Shown here one piece after another: positions 2,334 to 31,283 of a DNA stretch of 64,000 nt (position 1 is its first letter; each line of letters starts with the position of its first letter). The position numbers were made by a program, and so were the translations under genes. This DNA is from a virus. The stretch spans positions 53,788 to 117,787 of IMG/VR virus record IMGVR_UViG_3300013126_000014. One strand, 5' to 3'. The notes beneath the pieces were generated by a model. That model saw only the letters and a program-made list of their open reading frames with translations, searched no databases and was not told the origin of the DNA.

Positions 2334-2355
2334 AACAATAGTATAACAGTTCCTA

Positions 2356-9089: not shown

Positions 9090-11183
9090 ATGGCAATTGA
9101 TCATAGAATAGGTACAAAAGTTAGTAAATCACTGCGCAGAGAAGACACTCCTGCGATTAGGGTAGATCCGTATCCGTATATAGGGGTAGTAAAGAACAAC
9201 TATGATAGTATACGCAGTGGTCGCCTGCAGGTGTTTATTCCTGATTTTGGCGGCGACGAGAACAATCCAAAAAATTGGCGTACAGTAAATTATGCTAGTC
9301 CGTTTATGGGCTATACCAATGTCCCTAAGGATTCTGGAACTACTAATTCATTTCAAAACGCAGCACATACCTACGGTATGTGGATGGTACCTCCGGATAT
9401 TGGTGTAGAAGTTATTGTTATCTTTGTTGGCGGAGATCCTCTCAGAGGGTTTTGGATCGCTTGCGTAAACAGTAATCTCAGCCATTACATGGTACCCGGG
9501 CTAGCGGCAAGTCAAAATGTTCAAGCAGATACTGCAGATGCTGGGTTTAAAGCAGGCAAAGTTAAAGATGCTAGTTACCCAGTTGTAGAGTTTAACGAAA
9601 ACGATCCCAAAGCTGTACACACTCCGGACTGGACATCAAACCCAAGACCTGTCCATGAGGTCCAAGCTGCTATATTAAGAAAACAAGGTTTAGATAGAGA
9701 CACTGTACGAGGTACTATTACTAGTAGTAGCCAACGCGAGAGCCCAAGTCATGTGTTTGGTATTAGTACTCCAGGTAGACCAATTAACGATCCTGCAGAT
9801 GATCCAAATTTTGAAAATAAAGTTAAATCTGGCGATTTAACCGCAGACGATTATGCAGTTAGAGCTAGAGCGGGCGGGCACACACTAGTTATGGATGATG
9901 GGAGTATTGGTCGACGAGATCAATTGTTTAGATTACGATCTGCTAGAGGTCATCAGATTATGATGCACGACACTAGCAACACCTTCTATATGGCCAACGC
10001 AGATGGGACTGTGTGGATAGAAATGACACAAGATGGCAGATTGGAGGTATATAGCTCTGGCAGTATTAGTTTAAGATCGCAAGGTTCGTTGAATTTACAC
10101 GCCGATAGTAATATCAATATTGATGCAGGCGGCAACTTCAACGTGAGATCCGGTGGCAAGGTTCAGTTTAATAGCCAAAGTTTAAATGTTATCACTGACG
10201 GGGCTATTACAGTTGCCGCCGGCGGCACTGTAGGTATTAACACTACAGGTGCTTTTAATGTGCAGTCGACGGGCATTAGCCTTGACGCCAATAGTGCAAA
10301 ACTAATACTCAATGGTCAAATCTTTGAAAACTCAACCGCTGGTGTTAATGTAAATCGCCCTACCCCAATAAAAGTAAATAATCTGTCAGATACGGTATTA
10401 GACAAAACAACAGGAACATACAAAATAGTACCTGGCGCATTGAATACTATTGTAACTGTAGCGCCAACACACGAGCCGTTTTCCTTGCATGCCACACGAC
10501 CGGAACCAGCACCACCTGCATCTAAAGTAGGAACGCAGCCTCAGGAATTTACAGGATCTAACGATGTTACTAATACCTTAGACGGTAAAGCAGTTAATAA
10601 TGCAGTTCCAGAAAAATATATTCAGATGCAGCTCGATGCGTTACCACCGCAGGGCAGCATAGGACCATTAGACAAAGATGATTTAACGGCATATTTTGCA
10701 CAGATGGGCTACAGCGAAAGCACATTTAGTTACAAGACGCAATTACCAGGTAGTCAATATCTAGGCAAGTATCAAATTGGTATCATTGCACTTAAAGATG
10801 CTAAATTGATTAAAGACAATGTAACCTCAGCTAGTCAACTTGACATAGCTAGCAACTGGATTGGCGGAGAAGGCAAACCTTCGAGTAAAGAAGAATTTTT
10901 AAATACCCCAGATCACCAAGAGCGGGCCATGTGGACTATTACAAACAACAACTATGGATACCTAATAGCCAACGGCGGAATTACTAGTGAAATGTCTAAA
11001 GAAAAAGTTGCAGGCATGCTAAGTGCAGCACATTTAGTAGGCCAAGGGCCGGCTGCTACTTGGAGGAAAAGCGGAGCAGATGCAAATGATGCAAACGGTA
11101 CAACTGCTAGCGATTACTTTAGTCGAGGTAAGTGGGCGTTGACCACATACGGTCCTAAAATAGATAGTCTACGCAACGGATAA
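9090..11183 (+). CDS. gp5: Baseplate hub spike gp5 with C-terminal lysozyme/transglycosylase-like domain
   Basis: A 697-residue tail spike. Residues 25-135 form the OB-fold domain of gp5/VgrG proteins (PYIGVVKNN, GRLQVFIPDFGG, GVEVIVIFVGGDPLRGFWI). Residues 330-415 are a repetitive VgrG-like beta-helix (LNLHADSNINIDAGGNF and similar strands). Residues 506-697 look like a peptidoglycan-cleaving domain: SESTF with candidate catalytic Glu543, GKYQI, and AAHLVGQG, matching the order of soluble lytic transglycosylase motifs. T4 gp5 has its lysozyme between the OB and helix domains; here the enzyme is at the C-terminus. It would pierce the outer membrane and open peptidoglycan. Confidence 0.87.
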   Translation: MAIDHRIGTKVSKSLRREDTPAIRVDPYPYIGVVKNNYDSIRSGRLQVFIPDFGGDENNPKNWRTVNYASPFMGYTNVPKDSGTTNSFQNAAHTYGMWMVPPDIGVEVIVIFVGGDPLRGFWIACVNSNLSHYMVPGLAASQNVQADTADAGFKAGKVKDASYPVVEFNENDPKAVHTPDWTSNPRPVHEVQAAILRKQGLDRDTVRGTITSSSQRESPSHVFGISTPGRPINDPADDPNFENKVKSGDLTADDYAVRARAGGHTLVMDDGSIGRRDQLFRLRSARGHQIMMHDTSNTFYMANADGTVWIEMTQDGRLEVYSSGSISLRSQGSLNLHADSNINIDAGGNFNVRSGGKVQFNSQSLNVITDGAITVAAGGTVGINTTGAFNVQSTGISLDANSAKLILNGQIFENSTAGVNVNRPTPIKVNNLSDTVLDKTTGTYKIVPGALNTIVTVAPTHEPFSLHATRPEPAPPASKVGTQPQEFTGSNDVTNTLDGKAVNNAVPEKYIQMQLDALPPQGSIGPLDKDDLTAYFAQMGYSESTFSYKTQLPGSQYLGKYQIGIIALKDAKLIKDNVTSASQLDIASNWIGGEGKPSSKEEFLNTPDHQERAMWTITNNNYGYLIANGGITSEMSKEKVAGMLSAAHLVGQGPAATWRKSGADANDANGTTASDYFSRGKWALTTYGPKIDSLRNG

Positions 11184-11199
11184 CAAGGTAAATATTATT

Positions 11200-11577
11200 A
11201 TGGCAAACTTTTATCGCGGATTTAGTACAGTTGGTCGAAATAAAAAATTTCGCCTAACTGACCTTGAATTAATCAAACAGGATCTTATTAATCATTTTCA
11301 CATTCGTAAAGGCGAAAAGTTAATGAATCCAAAATTTGGTACAGTGATATGGAATCTAATTCATGAGCCGCTGACTGAAGAGCTAAAAAGTGTAATCATT
11401 GAAGATGTTAATAATGTAGTTAATTACGATCCTCGTATCAGTGTTGATAATGTAGTAATTACGGAATATGAGCAGGGCATTCAAATTGAAATAGAGCTTC
11501 GATATCTTCAAACAAATCAAATCAATTCAATGTTACTACAGTTTGACAACCAAGCAAATACTCTAACTGTGCTGTAA
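11200..11577 (+). CDS. gp25: Baseplate wedge subunit gp25
   Basis: A 125-residue GPW/gp25-family protein. It has the typical RKGEKLMNPKFGTVIWNLIH segment around residues 45-65, followed by EPLTEELKSVIIEDV, the region of the conserved EPR-type core motif. In T4, gp25 links the wedge to the sheath and hub and initiates sheath assembly. It follows gp5 with a 16-base gap and precedes gp6, the usual order in marine T4-like phages. No promoter is evident directly before it, so it is probably read through from upstream. Confidence 0.93.
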   Translation: MANFYRGFSTVGRNKKFRLTDLELIKQDLINHFHIRKGEKLMNPKFGTVIWNLIHEPLTEELKSVIIEDVNNVVNYDPRISVDNVVITEYEQGIQIEIELRYLQTNQINSMLLQFDNQANTLTVL

Positions 11578-11627: not shown

Positions 11628-14600
11628 ATGGCTATTACCACAAGACAATCAAGTTTATTAGTTGCTGAAGATTGGACTAAGATCTATCAGACGTTCCGTA
11701 ACGCAGACTTTCAGAGTTACGATTATGAAACTTTACGCAAGTCCATGATCGATTACTTACGAACATATTACCCGGAAGATTTTAACGACTTTATCGAATC
11801 AAGCGAATTTATCGCTCTTATTGACTTAGTTGCATTCTTAGGACAATCGTTGGCATTTCGCGGCGATCTTAATGCACGAGAAAATTTCATTGATACAGCA
11901 CAACGTCGCGACAGTATTTTAAAACTTGCACGACTAATTTCCTATAATCCCAAACGTAATATTCCAGCTAGTGGATTCTTAAAGATTCAAAGCATTTCTA
12001 CTACAGAAGATGTCTACGACAGCAACGGATTTAATTTAAACGGAGTAGTCATCGATTGGGCAGACGCTGCCAATGATAACTGGCAGGAACAATTTACTGC
12101 TATAATGAATTCGGCGTTGGTTTCTAATCAAGTTATTAGTAAACCTAGCAATAGTCAACTAATCAACGGAATCACTAACGACGAATATCAGATTAACCTA
12201 GCACCAAATTTGACCGGTACTTTTGCTTTTCAAAGTTTAGTTGAGGGCAGTCAGATGAGCTTTCAGGCAATTAGTGCATCTAGCGCAGGTCAAACCTATG
12301 TATACGAAGTGGCACCAAAACCAAACCGTGCATTTAATCTTTTGTACAAAAATGATAATCTAGGCAACTCAAGCAATAATACTGGTTTCTTTGTCTACTT
12401 TAAACAGGGCGAACTTAAATCTCAAGATTTTATATTTGAAGAAAGTATTCCTAATCGTGTATTTGACATTAGTGTAAACAATATTAACCATTCGGATGTT
12501 TGGTTATATCAACTTGACAGCAACGGCAATCCTAGCACACTGTGGAATCAGGTATCATCAGTTGGCGTGCGTAACGTAATCTATAACAAAGAAACAGATA
12601 AAAATATCTATCAAGTAAACACACGTGCCGGTGACCAAATTAGTCTTGTATTTGGTGATGGGAGTTTTGCTAATAACCCACAAGGCAGTTTTAGAATTTA
12701 CTATCGTGTTAGCAATGGATTGGAATACAAAATAACACCTGACGAAATGCAGAATATTAGTCTATCATTAAACTATGTAAGTAGAGTTGGAAGGATTGAA
12801 ACATTAACTATTACTTCTAGTTTGCAGTACACTGTGGCAAATAGTTCAGGTAGAGAAACAGTAGAAGATATTAGACAAAAAGCACCGCAACAATATTACA
12901 CACAAGATCGTATGGTGACTGGTGAAGATTACAATGTTTTGCCATATACCTTGTTTAGTAATGTGTTAAAGGCCAAGGCAGTAAATCGCACAAGCTCGGG
13001 GGTGAGCCGTTATCTAGACGTAGTAGACAGTACAGGAAAATATTCAAGTACTAATATTTTTGCACAAGACGGCCTGCTATATCGTAATGAAACTGAAAAA
13101 ACTTTTAGTTTTGAGTATGTTAACAAAAACGACATCTATAGAGTTATATTAAATCGAATTAAACCTTTAGTGCAATCACAAGAAGCACTACAGTATTTTT
13201 ATGCCTTTTACCCATTGATCGATATAAACAACGCCTACTGGAATTTAAGTTCTACAGTTGCCAATGGTAGCACTGGATACTTGTACGATCCTGATGAGAA
13301 TACCATTCAAATTGGTAACATTGTGGCTAGTAATTTTAAGTACATCAAGGCAGGCAGTATTGTTAAATTTTCAGCAGGTGTAGGTAATTACTTTGATGCG
13401 CAAAATACTATTAACACAGGAACACCAAGCAAAAGCGGCGACAAGTACTATATCTATGCGGCCATTCAGCAGGTTATAGGTGATGGTACCAATGGCGGAT
13501 TAGGAAATCTAGCCAATGGCAGTGGCCCAATAATTATCAATGAGGTTGTGCCGCAAGGAGCAATCGCAGATCAAATCTATGCAGTATTCAATAATGAATT
13601 TTCAATCTCATTGATCGAAACTATGGTGGGGTATATTCAAGCATTTGAAGATTTTGGTCTACGTTATGATCATAACACCACTCAGTGGGAAGTAATACGT
13701 CCGCAGGATTTAAGTACAGGCAAATTTAGTTTTGATTATGTAGGGGACACCTCTAGTCAACAACTTGACTCAAGTTGGATGATACGTTTTAAGACCGTGG
13801 GGCAAACTTACACTGTGGTATATCGCGGGTTGGAATACATTTTTGAAAGCGTAAAAGAAACTAACTTCTATTTTGATGATGCGGTTAAAGTTTATGACCC
13901 AAACACTGGGTCAACGATTAACGATCAAGTAAAAGTACTAAAAGTCAATAGTCAGCCCGACAGCGCAAGTCCGTTGGCCCTTGATTATGTTTGGTACATC
14001 TACAAAAACATTACTGAAATCGATGGATACGAAAATCCTAATAAGATTTTAGTAACATTCCCAGATAGTGATAATGACGGCATACCCGACAATCCCGAAC
14101 TGTTTGAGTTGATTGTTGCTCCTGAAATTAACGCTGAAGAGAAATATGTGTATTTCCAAAACACTTACGGATATGACAATTATGTTATACAAACTCCAGT
14201 GAACAATACAACTGTTAATAGTCAATACAGTACGTTGCGAGATGCTCAGATCGCAGCTACTCTATATCAAAATGGTCAGCTATTTTATATTGCACCAGAA
14301 AATGCGTTTTATCAATTGAATGTTAGCGGTGCAACGTATACATTAAATGTAACCACAGAGTATACTGCAAAAAAAGGTCGACAAGATATATATTTCCAAT
14401 ACAGACACAACAGTCCTAACTACAGACGTATTGATCCAAGTCCAAACAATATCATTGACCTGTATTTGTTAACTAAGCAATATTCAACTGATTATACCGC
14501 TTGGATTAGAGATACTAGCAGTACTATTACACAGCCAGTAGCACCAACAGGCGAGGAATTAAGTTTAGAGTTTAGTAACCTTGAAAAATATAAATCAGTT

Positions 14601-15011
14601 AGCGATACTCTAATTTATAATCCTGCTAAATTTAAACCAATTTTTGGAGACAAAGCCGAGCCTGCACTGCAAGCCACATTCAAAGTTGTAAAAAACCCTA
14701 GTGTTGTTGTCAGCGATAACGATGTAAAAACTAGTGTAATTAGTGCTATCAATGCATACTTTGAAGTTTCAAATTGGGACTTTGGAGAGACCTTTTATTT
14801 TAGTGAATTGAGCGCATACTTACATCAAGTGTTAGCGCCAAATATTGCTAGTATTATCATTGTACCTGCTAGCGAAGCGGGCGCATTTGGGGGGTTATTG
14901 CAAGTTAATGCAGAATATAATGAAATTATTATTAGCGCAGCAACTGTAGACAACGTACAAATAATTTCAGCAATTACCGCGGCGCAGATCAACCAATCTG
15001 CAACGGCTTAA
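11628..15011 (+). CDS. gp6: Baseplate wedge subunit gp6
   Basis: An 1127-residue baseplate protein. Its N-terminal 120 residues carry the gp6 signature seen in T4-like phages: LRKSMIDYLRTYYPEDFNDF, SSEFIALIDLVAFLGQSLAF, then RGDLNARENFIDTAQRRDSI. In T4 (660 aa) gp6 dimers form the inner iris of the baseplate and drive its change of shape on infection. The C-terminal region (about 960-1110) resembles the gp6/BaseplateJ closing domain (KVVKNPSVVVSDNDVKTSVI). The protein is nearly twice the T4 length, with extra beta-rich domains in the middle, as in cyanophages. Confidence 0.92.
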   Translation: MAITTRQSSLLVAEDWTKIYQTFRNADFQSYDYETLRKSMIDYLRTYYPEDFNDFIESSEFIALIDLVAFLGQSLAFRGDLNARENFIDTAQRRDSILKLARLISYNPKRNIPASGFLKIQSISTTEDVYDSNGFNLNGVVIDWADAANDNWQEQFTAIMNSALVSNQVISKPSNSQLINGITNDEYQINLAPNLTGTFAFQSLVEGSQMSFQAISASSAGQTYVYEVAPKPNRAFNLLYKNDNLGNSSNNTGFFVYFKQGELKSQDFIFEESIPNRVFDISVNNINHSDVWLYQLDSNGNPSTLWNQVSSVGVRNVIYNKETDKNIYQVNTRAGDQISLVFGDGSFANNPQGSFRIYYRVSNGLEYKITPDEMQNISLSLNYVSRVGRIETLTITSSLQYTVANSSGRETVEDIRQKAPQQYYTQDRMVTGEDYNVLPYTLFSNVLKAKAVNRTSSGVSRYLDVVDSTGKYSSTNIFAQDGLLYRNETEKTFSFEYVNKNDIYRVILNRIKPLVQSQEALQYFYAFYPLIDINNAYWNLSSTVANGSTGYLYDPDENTIQIGNIVASNFKYIKAGSIVKFSAGVGNYFDAQNTINTGTPSKSGDKYYIYAAIQQVIGDGTNGGLGNLANGSGPIIINEVVPQGAIADQIYAVFNNEFSISLIETMVGYIQAFEDFGLRYDHNTTQWEVIRPQDLSTGKFSFDYVGDTSSQQLDSSWMIRFKTVGQTYTVVYRGLEYIFESVKETNFYFDDAVKVYDPNTGSTINDQVKVLKVNSQPDSASPLALDYVWYIYKNITEIDGYENPNKILVTFPDSDNDGIPDNPELFELIVAPEINAEEKYVYFQNTYGYDNYVIQTPVNNTTVNSQYSTLRDAQIAATLYQNGQLFYIAPENAFYQLNVSGATYTLNVTTEYTAKKGRQDIYFQYRHNSPNYRRIDPSPNNIIDLYLLTKQYSTDYTAWIRDTSSTITQPVAPTGEELSLEFSNLEKYKSVSDTLIYNPAKFKPIFGDKAEPALQATFKVVKNPSVVVSDNDVKTSVISAINAYFEVSNWDFGETFYFSELSAYLHQVLAPNIASIIIVPASEAGAFGGLLQVNAEYNEIIISAATVDNVQIISAITAAQINQSATA

Positions 15012-15043: not shown

Positions 15044-18000
15044 ATGGCACTAAGAAAAACCTTAAAGTTTTTACCTGAAATATTTCAAACCGATGCAAAT
15101 GATAAATTCTTGTCGGCTACGTTGGATCAATTGATATCAGAACCAGAGTTAAAAACCGTCAATGGCTATATTGGTAGAAAATTTGCACCCACATATAAGT
15201 CTAAAGATAGTTATGTCACTGAAAACACATCAGATCGACAAAATTATCAACTTGAGCCAAGTGTTGTTGTTCGAGATGAACAATCTAATATAACATTTTT
15301 TAGCAGTTATATTGATCTATTAAACAAGATCAAGTACTATGGCGGTATTACAAATAATCATAGTCGATTATTTAATAATGAATTTTATAGTTTTGATCCT
15401 GGTGTTAGTTATGATAAGTTAATTAACTTTACACAATATTATTGGTTACCCAATGGTCCCGATTCTGTTGCTGTAAACACCTCTGGGGTAGCAACTGAAG
15501 AAACCTTTACAGTTACTCGAAACCCTACGACAGAAACATATACCTTTACAACTTCTACAGGTTTGGTGTCTGATACTCTTACATTAGCACGTGGTGGTAC
15601 ATATTATTTTGTAGTCAACCAACCGGGGGTTCCATTTTGGATACAAATTGAACCCGGAGTGGATGGAAAATTAAACGCTACACCTACTATTAGTAATCGA
15701 GAAGTGCTGGGTGTAACAAACAACGGAACTGATGAAGGGACTATTACTTTTATAGTGCCGCAGAGTGATGCACAAGATCGTTTCCTGACCATGGGAACGG
15801 TATTCAATGTTGACTATGCTACTCCATTTTATTCATTACCCTATAATAATCTGCACAATAAATTGCGTAGCCAATTTCTTAACGCATATCCTCAGTATGC
15901 TGGTATTACCGGTAACCTGGATGGAAAACATTTAGTTTTTGTTGACCAAACTTTGGCTACCAACTTTGGCGAGGAAGCATGGACCGCAGAAGAAGTATTA
16001 GATTTAGATCTTAACCCTATTTTAGGATGGGGCGAAGGTGACGTAGTTCCAGTCAACCAACGAAATGGTGTATGGAAGATAATATTAGTTGATGTTGGTG
16101 TTGATAATGATCCTTTAATTAGATTAGTGCCAGTACAGGATATTGAAGTAGACGAAAAAGTTTATGTTAAGTATGGATTGGGGAATGCTAATCGAGAATT
16201 TTACAAAGAATCGGACGGATTTTTATATAGAGTCCCAGTAATATCAACAGTACAAGATACTTTATACTTCCAAGATGCTGTTAAAACTAACATGTACGGT
16301 GATTTAAAAATCATTGAATATGCAGGTTGGAATATTGATGTAGAACAAGATATTTTAGGTAAAAAAACATATACAAGTCCGAATGGCGTCAAATTTACCA
16401 GTGGCCTTAAAATTGAATTTGGATCTGATGTAACCCCAACTAATTATCAAAATAAACAATACTATGTAGAAGGTGTGGGCGACGCAATTCGGTTGGTAGA
16501 CGTCACATTATTAGTAACACCAGAGCTATATAACGATGAACTAGAGTTAAATTATCCAGATCAGTCATTTCCTGATTATGTTACAATCAATAGAAGTGCC
16601 TTAGATTTAAATGCTTGGTCACGCAATAATCGTTGGTTCCATCGAGATGTTATTACTGCTACCGCTAGGTACAATAATACTATCCCAGTATTTGACCAAA
16701 CTTTGAGAGCACAACGACCAATTGTTCAATTTGAGGGTGATTTTCAGCTATATAATTATGGTCGAATCGGTAAGCGTCACATTGATGTGCTTGACTTAAC
16801 TACCACCGATGCATTTAACCAACTTGAAGGTGAAATTTTTGACGTAGCTTTAGGAACTACATTGTTTGACGGTATGCGAATTTTATTTGCCGCTGATAAT
16901 GATCCATTGGTTCGAAATAAAATTTACGTATTAAATTTAGTAGAATATGAAGAAGGAACCCCAGGCGACCCAGTTTTACGTATTAAACTCAACATAGCTG
17001 AGGATGGTGAAAATTTAGAGTGGGATAGTGTAGTAGTACTACAAGGACAGTATAAAGGTAGCCATTGGTGGTTTGATGGTACCAATTGGAATGAAAGCCA
17101 ACAAAAGACCGGGTTAAATCAAGATCCGTTATTTGAAGTACACACTCAAACTGGTGTAAGTTTGTCCACCTATCCTCGCAGTTCTTTTGCAGGAACTAAG
17201 ATATTTGGATATAAGAGACCAACAACTGGCACTGAAGACAGTATACTAGGATTTGCACTAAGCTATCGAAATTTTGGAACTCAAGGAGACATAGAATTTC
17301 AAAACTATTTTGATACTGATACCTTTAATTATGTGATAGATCAAGAAAGTTATACTCCGCATATTAATACAGGATTCTTAGTAAAGATTATTGATAGAAA
17401 TACTGTAGCGCACCGCAACATGTGGAAAACCGTAGTTGAAGAAAGCAAGCAGTATCAAATTCTTAATTACAGTTACACAAACTCAAATACGTTTATTTTA
17501 GATGTTATTCCTAATCCAAATGAAGCATCTATACCGTACTTAAAAGTCTACGTTAATAATCAACGACTAAATCCATCTAACTGGGTCTTTGACAGCGCAA
17601 ATAACTCTGTTACAGTTAATGTGATCTTATCTACAGACGACCGTATAGACATTTTAGTATACAGTGAACAAGTTAGTACCCGTGGTAACTATGAAGTCCC
17701 ACCTAATTTAGATTTAAATGCACAAAACGTTGATATAGATTCGTTAACATTAGGCCAGCTTCGTAACCATTTAGTTTCATTAAGTCAAAATAGTAAAGAT
17801 CTAATAGGCGAAGTTTTGGCCGCAAGTAATCTTCGAGATCTTGAAGTTAAGTCGCAAGGCGGTAATATCTTACAGCACAGCGCCGGCGTTCCGTATGCAA
17901 GTTTATTTTTATTAGATGATACAGCAAATTTCGTTGACGCGGTTCGATATACCCAACGCGAGTATGCTAAATTTAAAAATAAATTTTTAGAATTAAGTGC

Positions 18001-21000
18001 AAGTCTGACAGGAATTGACCCTACCAATCCTGCTGCAAGCGTGGATTTGATCTTAACAGAAATGAACAAGATTAAAAACTCAACATTCCCATGGTTCTAT
18101 AGCGACATGGTACCGTACGGTCCTTTAAAAACAATAGTAGCAGACGGTTATACTGTGTTTGACCCCACTGTACGATCTTATGAAATAACCAACGTCTTTA
18201 ATAGTCAACAATTGAGCAACAAGGCTGTATTAATATACTTAAATGACGTTCAGTTAGTAATAGGTAATGACTACACCTTTGATACAGATCGCCCGGCTAT
18301 TACGTTCAACGATAATCTTGAATTGGCTATAGATGATGTTATTAAAATTGTTGAGTATTCAAACACCGATGGTAATTATATCCCTGAGACCCCAACTAAG
18401 TTGGGGCTGTATCCTAAATTTGTTCCTGAGATATTTTTAGATGATACCTATAGAGATCCAATAAATGTAATCAGAGGGCACGATGGCAGTGTAACTCCGG
18501 CATTTGACGACTACAGAGATAATTTTATACTTGAGCTAGAGAAACGAATTTACAATAACATTAAATTGCCCGAAACAGAGTTGCCAAGAGAAATCTATAA
18601 TGTTATCCCTGGCAAATTTAGAGACAGCGATTATACAATATCTGAATTTAATAGTATTCTATCAGGTAGCTTCTTAAGCTGGATTGGTAATAATAGATTA
18701 GATTATTCAAGCAACGAAACATTTGAAAGCAATGATCCGTTCACATGGAATTACAGTCGATTTGTTGATAGAATCGATGGCGAGCCTCTGCCAGGTAGCT
18801 GGAGAGCATGTTTCCAATATTTCTACGACACCGACAGTCCCCACTTAAGACCTTGGAAGATGTTGGGCTTTAGTAGTAAACCAGACTGGTGGGAAGGATA
18901 TTACGGCCCTGCACCGTACACCGGTGGGAACACTTTGCTGTGGGATGATCTAGAAGTTGGACGCATTGTAGACGGTGATCGTGCTGGTACAGACGCAAGA
19001 TTTGCTCGTCCGGGTTTGAGTCAGATTATACCTGTAGACGAAAACGGCGGGTTGATTAGCCCCGCAGGGATCTTAACAAAAGCATTTAATAGTAGTAACG
19101 CCGCTACGGCCTGGGCGGTAGGCAATCAAGGACCAGTTGAAACTGCATGGCGCAGAAGCAGCGATTATCCTTATGCAATACAAATTGCAATGGCTTTGGC
19201 AAAACCTGCAAAATATTTTGGGCTGTTTATTAATGCATTTAATTACAGTAAAAATAATGATTTAGACCAATACCTAACCGCAGAAAATCACCACTTAGTT
19301 CAATCTGCAATTAATATCAATGGCGACCGCAGCGGTGGAGTTGTTGTTCGGTCTGCAGGTTATCTAAATTGGATCGCAAACTATCTAACCAATATGGGGG
19401 TTAATCCAGTTGAAAAGATTAGTTCGATGTTGACAAATTTCACAGTAAATCTGGCCTACAAAATGGCTGGGTTCACCGACCAAAGCTATGTTCAAGTATT
19501 GGCCGAACAAAGTAGTCCAAGCAGTACCAATGATAGTGTAGTTGTACCCGCAGAGAACTACAAGGTTCATTTATATAAATCAACCCCAGTGGATCGTATA
19601 AATTACAGTGCGGTGATTGTTGAAAAAACAACAAATGGATTCACTGTTCGCGGGTATAATTTATTAAATCCGTATTTTACAATTATACCAAGCACAGTTA
19701 ACAGTAACGCAACTAAGATCAAAGTACTTGACAGTGAAGGGGTAGTGTATTTTGACTATAAACCAATTAAGTTAACTGTTCCATACGGTTACGAATTTAA
19801 AAATCAACAACAGGTTGTTGACTTCTTAATAAGCTACGAAAGATTTTTAATTGCTCAAGGGTTTGTATTTGCAGAAATAGACGAAGCTCTTGCAGAAGTA
19901 CGAAACTTTAAGTTGAGTGTTAAAGAATTCTTATTTTGGGCTCAACAAGGTTGGACTACCGGTAGTGTACTGGTGTTAAGTCCTGCAGGCGAAAATATAC
20001 GATGCAACACTTCCGGTGCAATAGTTGATGGGATCCAAGATGATCAATATACAACAAAAGTATTAGATCAAAACTTTAAATTAGTTAAGAATAATAACTA
20101 TAACGTAATGCGTAGCCCTACGGAATTTAAGCTATCGCTTACTAACGATCAAGTTGTTGGTTTTGTAGATTTAAATCTAGTACAATACGAACATGTATTG
20201 ATATTTGACAATACTACGGTATTCAATGATATTATATATAAACCAGAGCTTGGTAACAGACAATATCGATTGAAACTAATAGGACAAAAAACTGATAATT
20301 GGGATGGAAGTTTATATGCACCAGGATTCTTATATAACTCAGGAGAAGTAGATGCATGGCAGTCTGGCAAAGATTACTTAAAAGGTGATCTGGTAGAGTT
20401 TAAAGATCAATTCTATGTGGCTTTAAATAATATTTCTGCAGCAGATGATTTTAAATTTTTAGATTGGAAGTTGGCTGATTACGGGCAGGTTCAAAAGGGA
20501 TTACTAAGCAATTTCTCAAGCATAGCAGTGAAATCACAAAGTTATTACGATCCGTATGGATATTTCAATGATGCAGACCAAGTTAAGTATAGTCACGGGT
20601 TAATTGGATTTAAACCTCGACAATATTTAGATGATCTTGGAGTCAACGAAACTAGCCAAATTGAATTTTATAAAGGGTATATTAGACAAAAGGGAACACC
20701 TAATGCATTTGACGCATTAACTCAAGCGCAGTTTAATAATCTTGCCAGTGATATTAATTATTTTGAAGAATGGGCAGTGCGCATAGGTGAGTACGGTGCA
20801 GTTGACACAAATCCGTACATTGAAATCCCATTGGACGAAAAAGCGTTTTCAGTTAACCCAGCAACTGCTGAATTTGTATACGGCACACGTCGCAACGAAG
20901 GTGACGGCGTTACGATCTTTAATAGCAGCCAACTTTATAGATTAACAGACCAGTACAATGGTAATATAGCATTAAATCGCGATAATAACAGCGACTATAG

Positions 21001-24000
21001 CAACGATATTCTAACAGCAGGATATGTTAACATAGATGATGTCGACGCCACAATCTTTGATCTGTCAGAATTTTCAATGTTGAACGATAGATTAGACATA
21101 ATTGGCAATGGATATAGTATATGGGTGGCTAAAGATTACACTCAAGATTGGAATGTATATCGTGTCACTGAAACGGATAATGATGTAATCTTCTTAACTA
21201 ATGCATTAGATGGATACATCACATTTACAACCAATTTACCTCATGGACTTTTGGTCAATAGCATATTTATGGTTAGAAATTTTAACGCTGCGTTCGACGG
21301 TTTCTATCAGGTAAATTCAGTGGACGATCTGACTAGAGTAACAGTGTCATACGCTGGGGATACTTCTGAGTTGTCAGAATTAAATGGTCGCGGGACACTG
21401 TTTGTACTGGATAGTTTGCGATTCCAATTTATGGAAGAGGCACGAAAATATGTTCCTCCACATGGTTGGAAAGAAGGAGAGAAGATCTGGATTGACTTAG
21501 ATGCTCCGACTAGTTTTGTCCAAGGGCAACCATACGAAACAGGCAATAACCTGTGGAAAGTTTATGAAAAACGTATGCCATGGAATCTGAAACAGCAATT
21601 AACCAAAGGCGAAGAAGAATATGCTGCAAATGATGGGTTTGGCACTAGTGTAAAACTAAGCGCAGATGGGTTAATTGCTGTTACTGGTAATCCCCTTTCT
21701 GGTTCTACTGGTACAGTTAGCACGTTTGCTAAAAATTCAACTAATGAATTTATACAGACATTTACTATTGTTCCGGATACTGGGAATGTATCAGAGTTTG
21801 GAACTAGTATTGACCTATCTACTAATCGAATCGCAGTGGGCGCACCGGGCAGCAATAACGACAATGGTTACGTATATGTTTATAAAAAACTACAGGATGT
21901 AGCATCGTACGATCGATCACAAGTGATCGTGGGTAACTTATCTGCATCTGGTGATCGATTTGGCTTTAGTGTAAGTTTAGACGAATTTGGCGAATGGTTA
22001 TATGTTGGTGCTCCAGGAAATGACAAAGTATATATTTACGGATTGAATAAGAGTGTCACTGAGCGAGAACACGTAGAGTCTGTTAATAATTTAAATATCC
22101 TTTCGTTAAGCGCAAACATCACTGCAAATATTGGTGACCATATTACTCAACCTACTACAGGTGCTGATCTAATAGTTACGGCAAATGTGTCTAATGGAAG
22201 TAATGTAGAAGTAAGTGCATTAACTAATATTGTCACTGGGGTAAGTTCTGGCAACATCCAGATTGTAAATGTTAACATACACGGTGACCCTATAGCGATC
22301 ACCAATGTAGCAATTTATCCTACTGCTACATATACTTCGTCGACTCGAAATTCTATTAGTCTTTCATTCACCCCCGATGTTGCAGATGATGCAAATAGTC
22401 TACTAGTAACTAGCAGAGAGCGTACATACATACCAAATGTTGACTATACACTTAGTGGAACAACAGTAACATTTTCAGCTAATATAGAACAAAATGATAT
22501 TAGTATCAAGCAAGCACCATATTACTCATTGGTATCAACAGTACAGGGCGCCGCGGGTAGCGAATTTGGATATGTAGTTGACAGCAGTTATGACGGAGCA
22601 CAACTTGGGGTTGGTGCACCAAACGAAACAGTTAACGTAGGTATAAGAACTGATGGAATTAAAGTTGCTATACCAGTAGGCACGGCAACTGCGAATATTG
22701 TTAGTTATACTGAGTATGTTGGAGCAGGCGCAGTATTTATATACGATCGTGTAATTGAAGCATTTGAAAGCACAGGCAATCAAGATTATACTACAAACGG
22801 TACTATCGGAGCAGTGCATAAGGTTACAATTGATAACATTGAAATTCCATTTAGTGAGTACCAAACATCGTTCACTACCCCATCACTGGCAAATAACGTA
22901 GTTAGATTTATTACTCCACCAGACGTTGGTAAAGTTGTTTATATAGAAACTAACGAAATTAACCTACTAGAGAAATTAATAGGTATCGACAGCCTTGAGG
23001 GCGGCCTAGAAGCTATTCAGAGCGGCGCAAGATTTGGTACTAGCTTGACAATCTGTTCAAACAACTGTGCATTTTACATTGGCGCTCCGTATTACAACAA
23101 CGGCACAACATACAACACTGGCGCAGTTTGGAAATTCCATAGTAGAGGTCGGTTATATGGTACTAACACAGGCTACGCAATTAACCCAACATTTGCTCCA
23201 AACGATACAATCCGATTAGATAACTTTGAAGTTCGAGTTAATCTTGGATTAAGCGGAAACATATCAGTGACCACTGGTGATTTTATTACACAACCTAGTT
23301 CAGGCGCAAACGTTGCTGTCACTGAGGATACCTCTGGAAATTATATTAAAATTTCAGATTACGCCGACGCTAATGTATTTGTTGTTGGTTCTGGAAACAT
23401 CTACGTGAATGGTGCTGATGCTAATGTAACTGTACGATCAACAAGTTTAGATGAATTTGTTGAAGATATTAATTCAGCTGATTTACTAGGCATTACCGCA
23501 ACAAATGAAGGCGGTAAATTAAGAATTGACTCAGACAAAACTGTGGCCAAAAACTTGTTACGTATTCTATCTGGTAGAAACATATCAGCGAACCCACAAG
23601 GCGTATCAAATGTTTACTCGTCGGCTGAACTAGCGGTATTTGCGTTCATGCAGATTATTATCAATCCGTACAACTCAACTAACGAGTATTTTGGTAATAA
23701 AGTTATTTTGGCAAGAAACGCTTATATGTTGGTAATTGGTAGCGAGCGTGGTACCACTAAAAAATATACAACATTTGACGATGCAACTACTACATTGGAT
23801 AGCGATTCTACTGCGTTCTTTGACAGCATCAAAGGCAGCGGTAGTGTATACATTTATGAATTATACGATGATCCTCGAGACGAGGTTGAAAATCCAGGGC
23901 GATATGCTTTTGCACAGCAACTCAACCCAGGTGATCTAAATCCGGGCGATCGATTTGGAGCCGCAGTTGATATCGTAGGAGACACAATTATTGTAAGTAG

Positions 24001-27000
24001 TCCAGGCGACGATACTACATTGACTGATGCAGGAAGTGTATACATATTTGAAAATCCTACTAGAACCAGAGGTTGGAACTTAATAAGATATCAACAACCT
24101 AAAGTTGATACAGATAGTGTGAATCATATTTTCTTATACAATAAAAATGCTAATACCATTTTAACTAACTTAGAATTCATTGATCCAGCTAAAGGAAAAA
24201 TACCAGGGTTAGCAGAACAAGAAATTGACTATAAAACAGCTTACGACCCTGCCAAATACAATCGAGGATCCAATCCTCGAACAGCGGTTAATTCTGATCT
24301 GTACTGGGGCGCTGAACAATTAGGGCAAGTTTGGTGGGATTTAGATCGTGTTCGATATATTGACTACGAACAAGATTCGTTAACATATCGTTCTATTAAT
24401 TGGGGTAGATTGTTCCCAGATAGTACTATAGAAATTCTTGAGTGGGCCGAAAGTGATGTCTTACCTAGTCAATATGTTGATACATACCCAAATCGAGGCG
24501 TACCTAAATACCAAGACGATAGTGCATACGTTGAAGTGAGTTATGTTGATAGTTTAACTAATAACATTACAAGTAAGTATTATTTCTGGGTGGGCGGAAG
24601 AACTGATCTGGACACTGTGACTGCTCCAAATCGTCGATTACCGTTAACAGTAATTTCCTCATTGATAGAAAATCCTAAATCGGCTGGTGTTGCTTATGCT
24701 GCTATTGTGCAGAATAATGCTGTGATTTTATATAACGTAGGCTCATACCTAAGTGCCAGCGATACTATTTTACATCTTGACTACGAAGTTGTTAAAAATA
24801 ACAGTATAATTCACAGTGAATATGAACTGATACAGAAAGGTAATGCTTTAAGTTTTGTTCCGGCTAAAATATTAAACAAATTGATTGATAGTTTAAGCGG
24901 CATTGATGCCGCAGGCGCAGTGGTTCCGGACCCTAAATTAAGTGTAGCAGATAGATTGGGGGTCGGATTCCGCCCACGACAAAGTATGTTTGTTGATCGG
25001 TTAGCTGCTATGAACGATTTAGTTCAGTATGTTAACGGTATTTTAATTAAGAAACCAATTGCAAGACAATACGATTTAACAAAACTGAATTCTGCAGAGC
25101 CTATGCCCAACGCAAAACTTGGTGAATACGACCAACTAGTGGCCACAGAAGAGGCATTGGCTTATATTGATGTTACAAATCTACCTGTAGGCTACAAAAT
25201 ATTAATTGAGACGGATACTACTCAGGACAATTTATGGGTACTATACACCTTAAATCAAGATTTAGTGTGGGAAATTGCCCGAGTACAATCATATAAAACA
25301 AACCTGTATTGGGAATATGTCGACTGGTACGCAGAAGGATATGATAATACTATACAAGTGGACTATGCAGTTACTACTATTATTGATGCACTGAAATTGC
25401 AGGCAGAACCAGGCAGTGAAATTCTTGTTCGTGTTGAACTAGGCGAAACTGGCGGCTGGAATATCCTTGTTGTTAACGACCAAGGCGGATTTGATGTTGT
25501 GGGTATTCAAAACGGTACCATACAACTTAAATCAAATCTTGGGGACTTTGCTAACAATGAATTAGGATTCAGTAATCAAGGGTTTGATGTTAACCGATGG
25601 GATCAAAACCCAAACGTTGAGATTCGTTATATTATTCAAGCTCTTCACGAAGACATTTTTATTAATGAACTAGGCGCAGAAACTAATAAGCTGTTCTTTG
25701 TAATGGTTAACTACCTATTCGGCGAACAAAAATATGTAGATTGGATCTTTAAAACTAGTTTTATTAGCGTAACGCACAGTCTGAGAGAATTAAATCAATT
25801 CCCTAATTACATTAAAGACAATCAAACCTACTACCAAGATTATATCAATGAAGTTAAACCTTACTCGACTAAAATTCGAGAATATTTAGTTGGCTACAAC
25901 AGTTTAGACCTCTTTGAAGGTAGTGTAACTGATTTTGATCTGCCTCCATACTACGATACTGATACTAAAATATTTAGAAGTCCAAGCGGTGAGGAAGTAG
26001 TTAAAGATCAAGCACTATGGCAAACTGATGTATACAGCCAATGGTACCAAAATAGAAATAATACTGTAGTAAGTATATTAGTTGAAGATGGCGGTAGTGG
26101 TTACACAGATGAGCCAATTATAACTATTATTGGCGGCGGTAGTGGTGTAACTTCAGCAACCGCAAGAGCTGTAATTGATTTTGACACTGGAGCAGTAACC
26201 AACATCATTGTTACTAATCCGGGCAGCGGATACTTTGTAACTCCAACAGTGATAGTCAATGGATCAAGTACGGTTCCGGCACGTGCATATGCAGTGTTGC
26301 AAAATAACCAAGTTAGAAACATTAACACTACGTTAAAATTTGATCGTATTTCTTATACTAGCAGTGTAATAGATTGGTCTGCAAATACCTCCTTAACAGC
26401 AAACACTATAGTAAGCTATAATGGGGTAGGATATAGAGTTAATGCAAATATTACAACCGGTAGTAGCTTCAATCCTGACAATTACACAAGAGTAAATGCT
26501 AGCGAGTTTGACAATGCTAATGACCGTATCATGGCATATTATGCACCAAGTGACACAATGCCTGCTCGAGATCTAGGGCAACTACTAAAAGGCATAGATT
26601 ACCCTGGGGTACAGGTAACGGGATTAAATTTTGATCAACAACCTGGATATGATGGTGCTGGCGGCTTTGACAAAATATTATTTGACAATGTTCAATATGA
26701 CGAAGATGGTAACCCTATATTGGGCGACAGCACTGTAGATACATTAATCAGTAGTTTATATACTGATTCTACTCTAGGAACACGAGCAGAGGATATCAAT
26801 TTAGATGGCGGAGAATACGTAGATGCTTATTCAAGTCATGCCCCGGAAGAACTTATCCCAGGGATTGTTTTTGATACCTTAGATATTCAAGTGTATACTA
26901 AAGTTGATTCTAACGTGAATGTGTTAGGTTACAGAATATTCAATAATATGGTAAGAAATGAAAGCTTCTTGCGTATATCCAATGCGTTCTCAACATTGTT

Positions 27001-28012
27001 GGCGCAGGACTTATTGATCACAGATACTGAGATTAAAGTCATTGATGCATCCAAATGTCCAGAACCGAGTCCAGGAACTGCTACACCTGGGGTGGTATTT
27101 GTTGGGGCAGAACGCATTACATATTTTGTGAGAGATTTAACAACTAACACATTGAGCCAACTGCGACGTGGTACACAGGGTACTGGAACTCCGGCGGTGC
27201 ATGCCGAGTTTACTAAAGTGGTTGATGCTAGCCTAAATCAAGTAGTACCAAGTGTTACTAAAGGTAATGTTACATACACAACAACTACCTCAATTAATGC
27301 AACTAAATCTCCAAGTTTCAAACTGAAACTAACTGGCAATATTACGGCAAATGTTGGGGATGTGATTACTCAGGCAACTAGCGGTGCAAATGTTAGGGTA
27401 GTGGGTACTGATTGGGAAGATAGCGATACAATTTGGTATACTAGAAACTCAAACAACCCATTTGAATTTACAGATATTCAATTGCAGTTTAGCGCCAACT
27501 TGACAATATTTGCTGGAGACATCGTAACACAAGAATCTTCTTCTGCAAATTTAACTGTGATCACTACTGTATACGACACTGCTAATGTTATTCTGCGTTA
27601 CAACTCACTCGAAACACTTAATGTTAGTGGAGGCAATCTGTTAGTAAACGGTGTTGACTCTGGTTATACCGCTATTACAATATATGCCGATCCTGTAGCT
27701 ACAAGTAATTTAGCAGTCAACGGCATATATACAACTGACATTTATCCAGTTAGCAGAACTATTCTTGGATCGGTGAATCAAAACGGCAATGTAACTGTGG
27801 GCGCAAACGCTACTTTAGCGACAACAAGTATCTGGTACAATTTAGGTAATGGCACTACAACAAATACCGACGGAGCAGGATTTGATGGAGCAACCACTGA
27901 ACAAGTTGACTTCCTGAGGGAATACCCAGCAACCTATACCATTGGTATAGTCTCTGAAGATGCGGTAAATATATTATCTACTGAAGATGATGAAATAATT
28001 ATTGAGGAATAA
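15044..28012 (+). CDS. Giant baseplate wedge protein, gp7-like, with embedded beta-propeller
   Basis: A single 4322-residue frame directly after gp6, at the position of gp7 in T4 (1032 aa). The N-terminus (MALRKTLKFLPEIFQTDAND and a YYGGITNNHSRLFNNEFYSF segment) resembles the first protein after gp6 in marine T4-like phages, which I take as gp7-like. Residues about 2196-3002 contain seven FG-GAP-like units (FGxSV...GAP...G.VYIY), the signature of an integrin-alpha-type seven-bladed propeller. Four copies of a 'GNITANxGDxITQxxSGAN' module occur, two between blades and two near the C-terminus. GSGY repeats lie near residues 3680-3740. No frameshift or stop interrupts it. It could be a fusion replacing gp7, gp8 and gp10. 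Confidence 0.8.
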   Translation: MALRKTLKFLPEIFQTDANDKFLSATLDQLISEPELKTVNGYIGRKFAPTYKSKDSYVTENTSDRQNYQLEPSVVVRDEQSNITFFSSYIDLLNKIKYYGGITNNHSRLFNNEFYSFDPGVSYDKLINFTQYYWLPNGPDSVAVNTSGVATEETFTVTRNPTTETYTFTTSTGLVSDTLTLARGGTYYFVVNQPGVPFWIQIEPGVDGKLNATPTISNREVLGVTNNGTDEGTITFIVPQSDAQDRFLTMGTVFNVDYATPFYSLPYNNLHNKLRSQFLNAYPQYAGITGNLDGKHLVFVDQTLATNFGEEAWTAEEVLDLDLNPILGWGEGDVVPVNQRNGVWKIILVDVGVDNDPLIRLVPVQDIEVDEKVYVKYGLGNANREFYKESDGFLYRVPVISTVQDTLYFQDAVKTNMYGDLKIIEYAGWNIDVEQDILGKKTYTSPNGVKFTSGLKIEFGSDVTPTNYQNKQYYVEGVGDAIRLVDVTLLVTPELYNDELELNYPDQSFPDYVTINRSALDLNAWSRNNRWFHRDVITATARYNNTIPVFDQTLRAQRPIVQFEGDFQLYNYGRIGKRHIDVLDLTTTDAFNQLEGEIFDVALGTTLFDGMRILFAADNDPLVRNKIYVLNLVEYEEGTPGDPVLRIKLNIAEDGENLEWDSVVVLQGQYKGSHWWFDGTNWNESQQKTGLNQDPLFEVHTQTGVSLSTYPRSSFAGTKIFGYKRPTTGTEDSILGFALSYRNFGTQGDIEFQNYFDTDTFNYVIDQESYTPHINTGFLVKIIDRNTVAHRNMWKTVVEESKQYQILNYSYTNSNTFILDVIPNPNEASIPYLKVYVNNQRLNPSNWVFDSANNSVTVNVILSTDDRIDILVYSEQVSTRGNYEVPPNLDLNAQNVDIDSLTLGQLRNHLVSLSQNSKDLIGEVLAASNLRDLEVKSQGGNILQHSAGVPYASLFLLDDTANFVDAVRYTQREYAKFKNKFLELSASLTGIDPTNPAASVDLILTEMNKIKNSTFPWFYSDMVPYGPLKTIVADGYTVFDPTVRSYEITNVFNSQQLSNKAVLIYLNDVQLVIGNDYTFDTDRPAITFNDNLELAIDDVIKIVEYSNTDGNYIPETPTKLGLYPKFVPEIFLDDTYRDPINVIRGHDGSVTPAFDDYRDNFILELEKRIYNNIKLPETELPREIYNVIPGKFRDSDYTISEFNSILSGSFLSWIGNNRLDYSSNETFESNDPFTWNYSRFVDRIDGEPLPGSWRACFQYFYDTDSPHLRPWKMLGFSSKPDWWEGYYGPAPYTGGNTLLWDDLEVGRIVDGDRAGTDARFARPGLSQIIPVDENGGLISPAGILTKAFNSSNAATAWAVGNQGPVETAWRRSSDYPYAIQIAMALAKPAKYFGLFINAFNYSKNNDLDQYLTAENHHLVQSAININGDRSGGVVVRSAGYLNWIANYLTNMGVNPVEKISSMLTNFTVNLAYKMAGFTDQSYVQVLAEQSSPSSTNDSVVVPAENYKVHLYKSTPVDRINYSAVIVEKTTNGFTVRGYNLLNPYFTIIPSTVNSNATKIKVLDSEGVVYFDYKPIKLTVPYGYEFKNQQQVVDFLISYERFLIAQGFVFAEIDEALAEVRNFKLSVKEFLFWAQQGWTTGSVLVLSPAGENIRCNTSGAIVDGIQDDQYTTKVLDQNFKLVKNNNYNVMRSPTEFKLSLTNDQVVGFVDLNLVQYEHVLIFDNTTVFNDIIYKPELGNRQYRLKLIGQKTDNWDGSLYAPGFLYNSGEVDAWQSGKDYLKGDLVEFKDQFYVALNNISAADDFKFLDWKLADYGQVQKGLLSNFSSIAVKSQSYYDPYGYFNDADQVKYSHGLIGFKPRQYLDDLGVNETSQIEFYKGYIRQKGTPNAFDALTQAQFNNLASDINYFEEWAVRIGEYGAVDTNPYIEIPLDEKAFSVNPATAEFVYGTRRNEGDGVTIFNSSQLYRLTDQYNGNIALNRDNNSDYSNDILTAGYVNIDDVDATIFDLSEFSMLNDRLDIIGNGYSIWVAKDYTQDWNVYRVTETDNDVIFLTNALDGYITFTTNLPHGLLVNSIFMVRNFNAAFDGFYQVNSVDDLTRVTVSYAGDTSELSELNGRGTLFVLDSLRFQFMEEARKYVPPHGWKEGEKIWIDLDAPTSFVQGQPYETGNNLWKVYEKRMPWNLKQQLTKGEEEYAANDGFGTSVKLSADGLIAVTGNPLSGSTGTVSTFAKNSTNEFIQTFTIVPDTGNVSEFGTSIDLSTNRIAVGAPGSNNDNGYVYVYKKLQDVASYDRSQVIVGNLSASGDRFGFSVSLDEFGEWLYVGAPGNDKVYIYGLNKSVTEREHVESVNNLNILSLSANITANIGDHITQPTTGADLIVTANVSNGSNVEVSALTNIVTGVSSGNIQIVNVNIHGDPIAITNVAIYPTATYTSSTRNSISLSFTPDVADDANSLLVTSRERTYIPNVDYTLSGTTVTFSANIEQNDISIKQAPYYSLVSTVQGAAGSEFGYVVDSSYDGAQLGVGAPNETVNVGIRTDGIKVAIPVGTATANIVSYTEYVGAGAVFIYDRVIEAFESTGNQDYTTNGTIGAVHKVTIDNIEIPFSEYQTSFTTPSLANNVVRFITPPDVGKVVYIETNEINLLEKLIGIDSLEGGLEAIQSGARFGTSLTICSNNCAFYIGAPYYNNGTTYNTGAVWKFHSRGRLYGTNTGYAINPTFAPNDTIRLDNFEVRVNLGLSGNISVTTGDFITQPSSGANVAVTEDTSGNYIKISDYADANVFVVGSGNIYVNGADANVTVRSTSLDEFVEDINSADLLGITATNEGGKLRIDSDKTVAKNLLRILSGRNISANPQGVSNVYSSAELAVFAFMQIIINPYNSTNEYFGNKVILARNAYMLVIGSERGTTKKYTTFDDATTTLDSDSTAFFDSIKGSGSVYIYELYDDPRDEVENPGRYAFAQQLNPGDLNPGDRFGAAVDIVGDTIIVSSPGDDTTLTDAGSVYIFENPTRTRGWNLIRYQQPKVDTDSVNHIFLYNKNANTILTNLEFIDPAKGKIPGLAEQEIDYKTAYDPAKYNRGSNPRTAVNSDLYWGAEQLGQVWWDLDRVRYIDYEQDSLTYRSINWGRLFPDSTIEILEWAESDVLPSQYVDTYPNRGVPKYQDDSAYVEVSYVDSLTNNITSKYYFWVGGRTDLDTVTAPNRRLPLTVISSLIENPKSAGVAYAAIVQNNAVILYNVGSYLSASDTILHLDYEVVKNNSIIHSEYELIQKGNALSFVPAKILNKLIDSLSGIDAAGAVVPDPKLSVADRLGVGFRPRQSMFVDRLAAMNDLVQYVNGILIKKPIARQYDLTKLNSAEPMPNAKLGEYDQLVATEEALAYIDVTNLPVGYKILIETDTTQDNLWVLYTLNQDLVWEIARVQSYKTNLYWEYVDWYAEGYDNTIQVDYAVTTIIDALKLQAEPGSEILVRVELGETGGWNILVVNDQGGFDVVGIQNGTIQLKSNLGDFANNELGFSNQGFDVNRWDQNPNVEIRYIIQALHEDIFINELGAETNKLFFVMVNYLFGEQKYVDWIFKTSFISVTHSLRELNQFPNYIKDNQTYYQDYINEVKPYSTKIREYLVGYNSLDLFEGSVTDFDLPPYYDTDTKIFRSPSGEEVVKDQALWQTDVYSQWYQNRNNTVVSILVEDGGSGYTDEPIITIIGGGSGVTSATARAVIDFDTGAVTNIIVTNPGSGYFVTPTVIVNGSSTVPARAYAVLQNNQVRNINTTLKFDRISYTSSVIDWSANTSLTANTIVSYNGVGYRVNANITTGSSFNPDNYTRVNASEFDNANDRIMAYYAPSDTMPARDLGQLLKGIDYPGVQVTGLNFDQQPGYDGAGGFDKILFDNVQYDEDGNPILGDSTVDTLISSLYTDSTLGTRAEDINLDGGEYVDAYSSHAPEELIPGIVFDTLDIQVYTKVDSNVNVLGYRIFNNMVRNESFLRISNAFSTLLAQDLLITDTEIKVIDASKCPEPSPGTATPGVVFVGAERITYFVRDLTTNTLSQLRRGTQGTGTPAVHAEFTKVVDASLNQVVPSVTKGNVTYTTTTSINATKSPSFKLKLTGNITANVGDVITQATSGANVRVVGTDWEDSDTIWYTRNSNNPFEFTDIQLQFSANLTIFAGDIVTQESSSANLTVITTVYDTANVILRYNSLETLNVSGGNLLVNGVDSGYTAITIYADPVATSNLAVNGIYTTDIYPVSRTILGSVNQNGNVTVGANATLATTSIWYNLGNGTTTNTDGAGFDGATTEQVDFLREYPATYTIGIVSEDAVNILSTEDDEIIIEE
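22105..22315 (+). repeat. GNIT-GD-ITQ module, copy 1 of 4
   Basis: Encodes SANITANIGDHITQPTTGAD, then a variable strand, GNIQIVNVN and GDPIAITN. It is similar to the stretches near 23245-23430, 27326-27420 and 27487-27720. It interrupts the propeller between blades 3 and 4. The copies differ at DNA level, so this is an old duplication of a small beta module. Confidence 0.65.
23245..23430 (+). repeat. GNIT-GD-ITQ module, copy 2 of 4
   Basis: Encodes SGNISVTTGDFITQPSSGAN followed by GSGNIYVNGADANVTV. It lies between propeller blades 5 and 6, in a place comparable to copy 1. Confidence 0.65.
26080..26250 (+). repeat. Paired GSGY beta repeats in the gp7-like protein
   Basis: Two units encode GGSGYTDEPIITIIGGGSG and PGSGYFVTPTVIVNGSS, separated by about 40 residues. 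The GSGY-x-x-x-P-x-V/I-x-I pattern is common in phage tail proteins and probably forms short beta-solenoid rungs or a small binding domain. Confidence 0.55.
27326..27720 (+). repeat. GNIT-GD-ITQ module, copies 3 and 4 in tandem
   Basis: Copy 3 (from 27326) encodes TGNITANVGDVITQATSGAN; copy 4 (from 27487) encodes SANLTIFAGDIVTQESSSAN followed by GGNLLVNGVD and ADPVATSN. The second half of copy 4 matches the corresponding part of copy 1 (GDPIAITN). They lie near the C-terminus of the giant protein, outside the propeller. Confidence 0.62.
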
Positions 28013-31252: not shown

Positions 31253-31255
31253 CCA

Positions 31256-31263
31256 GATAAATA
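31256..31263 (+). promoter_or_regulatory. Putative late promoter (GATAAATA)
   Basis: GATAAATA lies in the 31-base gap between the paralogous fibre-like genes. As before gp6, two bases and TTATAATAGG follow. The repeated composite argues that this is a true late promoter joined to a ribosome binding site. Confidence 0.58.
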
Positions 31264-31283
31264 ACTTATAATAGGTAAAAGAG

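What the first reader, a model, noticed from the sequence alone, without database searches (positions are those of the whole stretch)
21630..24050. Integrin-like seven-bladed propeller inside a baseplate protein
Seen: seven FG-GAP-like units, the number that closes an integrin-alpha type propeller. Known: FG-GAP propellers bind ligands and often calcium. Inference: a receptor- or polysaccharide-binding head carried on the baseplate wedge.
Basis: partly seen in the sequence, partly recalled or inferred. Interest (0 to 1): 0.65.

Follow-up and report, generated by a model that had tools for sequence, protein, structure and literature searches.

The report
Integrin-like propeller in giant phage baseplate protein
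A very large tail-base protein of an uncultured giant phage carries, plugged into one exposed hairpin, a seven-bladed ring shaped like the head of human integrins; the ring is conserved across a whole lineage of environmental phages and missing from their cultured cousins, so it is probably a binding or docking head that these phages added to their tail base.

Summary
Residues 2193-3017 of a 4322-aa virion protein (window 15044-28012) contain seven FG-GAP units (Pfam FG-GAP_2, 2.5e-24; shuffles give 0.07 on average). AlphaFold2 with 47 relatives gives a confident model (pLDDT 84, pTM 0.85) whose best matches are integrin alpha propellers (Z 36-39, rmsd about 2.5 A). The refutation test was therefore passed. 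Calcium loops are absent. The protein is the RaK2/CBB/PA5oct-type giant virion protein encoded just after gp6, the T4 gp7 position; orthologues are mass-spectrometry-proven virion proteins, but a gp7 fold was not shown. The propeller is a clean insertion into a beta-hairpin: a relative on a 353-kb contig has the hairpin empty, one carries a YHYH domain there, and six cultured relatives lack it. It is inherited mainly vertically and diverges little more than its scaffold (56% versus 62-63% identity). One face of blades 4-6 is strongly conserved, the opposite face is not. Cyanophage S-MbCM6 has an FG-GAP propeller inserted in its own gp7-position giant protein, absent from siblings. Best reading: a peripheral integrin-type head docked on the baseplate that binds a surface ligand or another tail part; glycan binding is untested.

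The parts
15044..28012 (+). Giant virion (baseplate-region) protein, 4322 aa, orthologue of RaK2 ORF070 / CBB_236 / PA5oct gp355 / Atu_ph07 gp180
   Evidence: (phrog_10938)
21572..24070 (+). Inserted seven-bladed integrin-type (FG-GAP_2) beta-propeller, residues about 2177-3009
   Evidence: insertion limits
21554..21571 (+). Left arm of the host hairpin, W-K-V-Y-E-K (residues 2171-2176)
   Evidence: alignment with empty-site relative L137; hairpin strands 365-369 / 374-379 in the L137 model
24071..24106 (+). Right arm of the host hairpin, GWNLIRYQQPKV (residues 3010-3021)
22097..22297 (+). Small 'GDxITQxxSGA' beta module in the blade-3 C-D insert
23240..23440 (+). Second copy of the module in the blade-5 C-D insert; absent at the same place in L003/L004
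23048..23068 (+). TICSNNC, A-B loop of blade 5, with two cysteines invariant among close relatives
23774..23818 (+). Blade-6 B-C loop with conserved FDxxTTxxDxxSTxF motif, disordered in the model
26375..26482 (+). CBM_5_12-like carbohydrate-binding module in the C-terminal third
   Evidence: 9.3e-7 for the whole protein, above cut-off
11628..15011 (+). gp6-like baseplate wedge subunit, directly upstream
   Evidence: phrog_10646, phrog_219
11200..11577 (+). gp25-like baseplate wedge subunit
9090..11183 (+). gp5-like hub and tail lysozyme
5812..6117 (+). Baseplate wedge subunit (gp53-like)
   Evidence: phrog_7145

Best explanation
In an uncultured RaK2/PA5oct-related jumbo myophage, a closed seven-bladed integrin-alpha-type FG-GAP propeller has been inserted into a beta-hairpin of the giant virion protein encoded next to gp6 at the gp7 position. 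Because the ring enters and leaves at one place, it should hang from the scaffold as a head on two strands, one per copy of the protein (inferred; six per baseplate if the protein has gp7's copy number). The conserved face of blades 4-6 (A-B loops and the short C-D loop, including CxxxC) is probably the side that docks on the baseplate. The variable opposite face, equivalent to the ligand face of integrins, and the variable small beta modules hung on the C-D loops probably make contacts. The most likely job is binding: a widely shared host-surface ligand such as a glycan, or else another tail component. Shown: predicted fold, clean insertion, clade distribution, virion nature of orthologues. 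Inferred: docking face, copy number, ligand binding.
For: Fold: pLDDT 84.1 and pTM 0.85; integrin alphaM/alphaL/alphaX/alphaV Z 36-39, rmsd 2.4-2.7, 332-360 residues; the profile also finds integrin alpha-6 at 1.3e-7 by sequence. Clean insertion: backbone homology to six cultured phages stops at residues 1944-2052 and resumes at 3011-3032; L137 reads KWAVYKKGVYSWAQYRTQVDSVD, the hairpin without the ring, and its model has strands 365-369 and 374-379. The slot takes other domains: YHYH in L136 (6.6e-28). Tree: 84 of 92 rows have the propeller, fewest changes 3. Virion protein: CBB_236, detected by MS in PMC5259590, identity of the gene checked; PA5oct gp355 marked ESI-MS/MS. Conserved face: blades 4-6 bottom loops 0.41 bits versus top 1.34, P = 1.8e-6. 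Parallel: S-MbCM6 has an FG-GAP insertion in its gp7-position protein, absent in siblings.
Against: No ligand is known and no binding was tested. No Ca loops. The propeller is only slightly more divergent than the scaffold (56% versus 62-63%), which is not what a host-range tip usually does. A gp7 fold was not found for the scaffold. In blades 1-3 the bottom loops are slightly more variable than the top ones and over all blades there is no difference, so the docking face concerns half the ring only, and the face test was made after looking at the per-loop values. Top and bottom faces were assigned from strand order, not measured on coordinates.
Confidence: 0.6

Rival explanations
1. Structural docking platform: the propeller does not touch the host but holds another virion component (short tail fibre, whisker or tailspike) on the baseplate rim, as Kelch and other propellers do in protein-protein binding.
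For: Slow divergence and vertical inheritance; strongly conserved blades 4-6 surface; conserved flexible blade-6 B-C loop motif in 99 of 115 rows versus 8-9 expected; tail-fibre-like genes follow at 29879-32738.
Against: The ring is dispensable in evolution: empty in L137, replaced by a YHYH domain in L136, absent in the six cultured relatives examined. A required docking part should be lost less easily.
Confidence: 0.3
2. Host-range receptor-binding head under diversifying selection, swapped between phages, as first proposed.
For: Slot holds different domains in different phages; variable small modules, 1 to 9 copies per protein; variable top face.
Against: Within the clade one gain and two losses explain the tree; no close pair with a grossly divergent propeller on a conserved scaffold (largest gap 0.45 versus 0.68).
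Confidence: 0.08
3. Enzymatic propeller (for example a lyase or glycosidase that degrades host polysaccharide).
For: Some seven-bladed propellers are lyases; phage baseplates often carry depolymerases (own knowledge).
Against: No enzyme family hit in Pfam or NCBIfam above cut-off; the structural matches listed are integrins; the invariant cysteines are in an A-B loop, not at the central channel entrance.
Confidence: 0.04
4. Assembly artefact or a chance run of FG-GAP-like words.
For: Single metagenomic contig.
Against: More than 80 contigs with the same arrangement; shuffles.
Confidence: 0.01

Closest known systems
Integrin alpha-subunit head propeller (FG-GAP / FG-GAP_2, seven blades)
   Same: Seven blades and a whole-ring structural match, Z up to 39; large domain inserts in a propeller (compare the alpha I domain).
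   Different: No Ca loops; inserts are in C-D loops of blades 3-5, not between blades 2 and 3; about 17-22% identity; no beta subunit.
RaK2 / CBB_236 / PA5oct gp355 / Atu_ph07 gp180 giant virion proteins
   Same: Orthologous scaffold (about 23-40% identity by segment), same gene order after gp25 and gp6.
   Different: The six examined have no FG-GAP blade at this site; the gap there is about 90 to 1420 aa of other sequence.
Synechococcus phage S-MbCM6 7022-aa gp7-position virion protein
   Same: An FG-GAP_2 propeller (1.8e-40) as a clean 402-aa insertion absent from S-IOM18 and S-SM1; also YHYH and LamG domains.
   Different: Its scaffold has no detectable sequence relation to the window's; the propeller is closest to a free-standing S-TIM5 virion protein, so the insertion looks independent.
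Free-standing phage FG-GAP proteins (S-TIM5 gp54, Vibrio phage nt-1 ORF127)
   Same: FG-GAP_2 repeats in phage proteins; S-TIM5 gp54 is annotated as a virion protein.
   Different: Separate genes of about 400 aa, not baseplate insertions.
CBB_552 Kelch propeller
   Same: A beta-propeller detected in the virion of a RaK2-like phage (PMC5259590).
   Different: Kelch family, separate gene.

Membership tests
Integrin-alpha-type FG-GAP propeller | FG-GAP repeats over Pfam cut-off | tested here: met
   FG-GAP_2 85.7 bits versus 23; 47 of 47 relatives match
Integrin-alpha-type FG-GAP propeller | Seven blades in a closed ring | tested here: met
   Seven units; whole-ring match of the predicted model to integrin propellers, model residues 1-818
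Integrin-alpha-type FG-GAP propeller | DxDxDG-type Ca loops in A-B hairpins | tested here: not met
   None in the window; not conserved in relatives. So it has the integrin propeller fold but is not a Ca-binding integrin-type domain
Integrin-alpha-type FG-GAP propeller | Ligand binding on the top face with a beta subunit | not testable with these tools
   Needs experiment
RaK2-like giant virion structural protein | Sequence homology over the scaffold and same gene order | tested here: met
T4 gp7 baseplate wedge protein | Gene directly after gp6 in a baseplate operon | tested here: met
   S-IOM18 protein in the same position is annotated 'similar to gp7'
T4 gp7 baseplate wedge protein | Sequence or fold similarity to gp7 | tested here: inconclusive
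   No profile hit to gp7 in PDB sequences; the modelled scaffold piece matched only an 80-aa barrel; most of the scaffold was not modelled

The most novel reading that the evidence does not exclude
Giant gp7-position baseplate proteins of aquatic myophages act as scaffolds with plug-in slots. An integrin-type head has been inserted at least twice independently (jumbo clade and S-MbCM6), interchangeable with YHYH and other domains, giving a ring of integrin-like heads around the baseplate that makes the first, general contact with host surfaces.
Probability: 0.35. Interest if true: 0.7.

Novelty: new variant of a known kind. Interest (0 to 1): 0.52.

Why it matters
FG-GAP propellers are the fold that animals use to grip ligands in integrins. 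A 2024 paper (PMC11467894) still treats them as almost unknown in viruses, and I found no phage baseplate example in the held literature. Here one is a lineage-wide feature of uncultured jumbo phages, in a defined slot with an empty-site relative and a cultured cyanophage parallel, so its role can be tested directly in S-MbCM6.

Tried and rejected
Ca loop search: negative. FG-GAP_3 (PF13517) in the own record: no match. Direct PDB phmmer of single sequences: no useful match; a profile was needed. tblastn of the propeller in cultured phages at 1e-5: no match; weak hits only when relaxed. Relatives in bacterial and archaeal genome contigs: none; plasmids with the N-terminal part: none. A 7-row flank alignment was too diverged to scan with. 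gp7 fold identification failed: the L137 scaffold model (pLDDT 76, pTM 0.63) gave only an 80-aa barrel shared with the UBA1 FCCH domain and phage endosialidases/tailspikes, Z 8-10; absence of gp7 from those lists is not evidence against it. A LamG domain in SCTP-2's slot looked likely by eye but Pfam found nothing, so it is not claimed. The domain in P-RSM4's slot is unidentified. A hypervariable receptor tip was rejected as first choice because.

Full report
Check of the observation. The window is the last 64 kb of a 117.8-kb viral record. ORF 15044-28012 (+) encodes 4322 aa. Pfam finds FG-GAP_2 in it (78 bits for the protein, 86 for the domain alone), and this ORF is the only place with FG-GAP_2 in the 117.8-kb record. 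A blade profile places seven units at residues 2193-3017. A strict blade motif occurs seven times there and nowhere else in the protein; 2000 shuffles averaged 0.07 and never exceeded 2.

Fold. I collected relatives from viral contigs and folded the window domain with 47 sequences: pLDDT 84.1, pTM 0.85. VIA-align places integrin alphaM, alphaL, alphaX, alpha6 and alphaV propellers at Z 36-39, rmsd about 2.5 A, 332-360 residues, spanning model residues 1-818. The sequence profile finds integrin alpha-6 (1.3e-7) and alpha-4 on its own. The stated refutation, a fold that is not a closed propeller, did not occur. TM-scores in the Foldseek run are low, which I attribute to the inserts. DxDxDG loops are absent. 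Inserts sit in the C-D loops of blades 3, 4 and 5, and include a small GDxITQxxSGA module whose copy number varies from 1 to 9 per protein among those relatives that have it.

What protein carries it. Upstream genes are gp53-, gp5-, gp25- and gp6-like, and the giant gene follows gp6, where T4 has gp7. Its scaffold is orthologous to giant virion proteins of RaK2, CBB, PA5oct, Atu_ph07, Phosso and SCTP-2. CBB_236 (identified as the orthologue) was detected in virions by mass spectrometry (PMC5259590), and the PA5oct record marks its orthologue ESI-MS/MS. No gp7 similarity was demonstrated, so 'baseplate wedge' rests on position.

A plug-in slot. Homology to the six cultured relatives examined stops at residues 1944-2052 and resumes at 3011-3032. 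They have about 90 to 1420 aa of other sequence there and no blade. An uncultured relative on a 353-kb contig, L137, has the two arms of the hairpin joined directly (KWAVYKK-GVYSWAQYRTQVDSVD), and its model shows two strands there. L136 carries a YHYH domain at the slot. On a tree of the flank (92 rows) the presence of the propeller needs three changes, for example one gain and two losses; the root is not fixed and several branches are weak. The sample was taken by similarity, so frequencies are not those of nature.

Constraint. Among 39 close rows the mean identity is 62% (N flank), 56% (propeller) and 63% (C flank). In blades 4-6 the bottom loops (A-B and short C-D) have 0.41 bits of entropy against 1.34 for top loops (P = 1.8e-6); blades 1-3 show the weaker opposite (P = 0.02), and all blades together show no difference (P = 0.14). 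These contrasts were chosen after inspection of the per-loop table and neighbouring residues are not independent, so the P values are indicative only. The long blade-6 B-C loop, unfolded in the model, keeps a TxFDxxSTxF-like motif in 99 of 115 rows against 8-9 expected; this regular expression was loosened after two stricter versions.

Parallel in cyanophages. S-MbCM6 has a 7022-aa virion protein between gp6 and gp9 with FG-GAP_2, YHYH and Laminin_G_3. Residues 4433-4834, which hold the propeller, are missing from S-IOM18 and S-SM1, which have 14 aa there and 63-64% identity before it; P-RSM4 has other sequence. The S-IOM18 protein is annotated as similar to gp7. The S-MbCM6 propeller is closest to the free-standing S-TIM5 protein (47%) and its scaffold is not detectably related to the window's, so this looks like an independent insertion.

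Interpretation. A ring whose ends meet, placed in a hairpin of a baseplate-region protein, is best read as a projecting head. Its conserved side is probably docked and its other side free for contacts. Whether the contact is a host surface or another virion part is open; I lean to adhesion because the slot is emptied or refilled with other domains in relatives, but the slow evolution keeps the docking reading alive.

Novelty. FG-GAP propellers in phage proteins exist in annotations (S-TIM5, nt-1, S-MbCM6), and propellers in phage virions are known (Kelch in CBB; phi11 and SU10 among the papers listed). I found no paper describing an integrin-type propeller in a phage baseplate (open-access library only). 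This is a new variant of a known kind.

Noticed in passing
window 2356-3936 (-), 36924-49032: Cluster of at least six radical SAM proteins (one with B12-binding, one with SPASM) near the tail genes, with a carbamoyltransferase at 51640-53139; Atu_ph07 and Phosso also carry radical SAM genes beside the same giant gene.
   Followed up: partly
window 22097-22297, 23240-23440 and residues about 4093-4230 (27320-27733): A small GDxITQxxSGA beta module inserted several times in the giant protein, 1-9 copies in relatives, precisely absent at one place in L003/L004; no Pfam name.
   Followed up: partly
window residues 3672-3760 of the giant protein (26057-26323): GxGYTxxPxV repeat region that matches many copies in S-MbCM6 and in the slot of Atu_ph07.
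   Followed up: no
L137 model residues 247-330 (window about residues 2040-2125): Barrel domain just before the slot resembles the UBA1 FCCH domain and a barrel of phage endosialidases and tailspikes, Z 8-10.
   Followed up: no
L180 (Sinorhizobium phage Phosso): A separate 11-kb gene with FG-GAP-like blades far from the baseplate genes.
   Followed up: no
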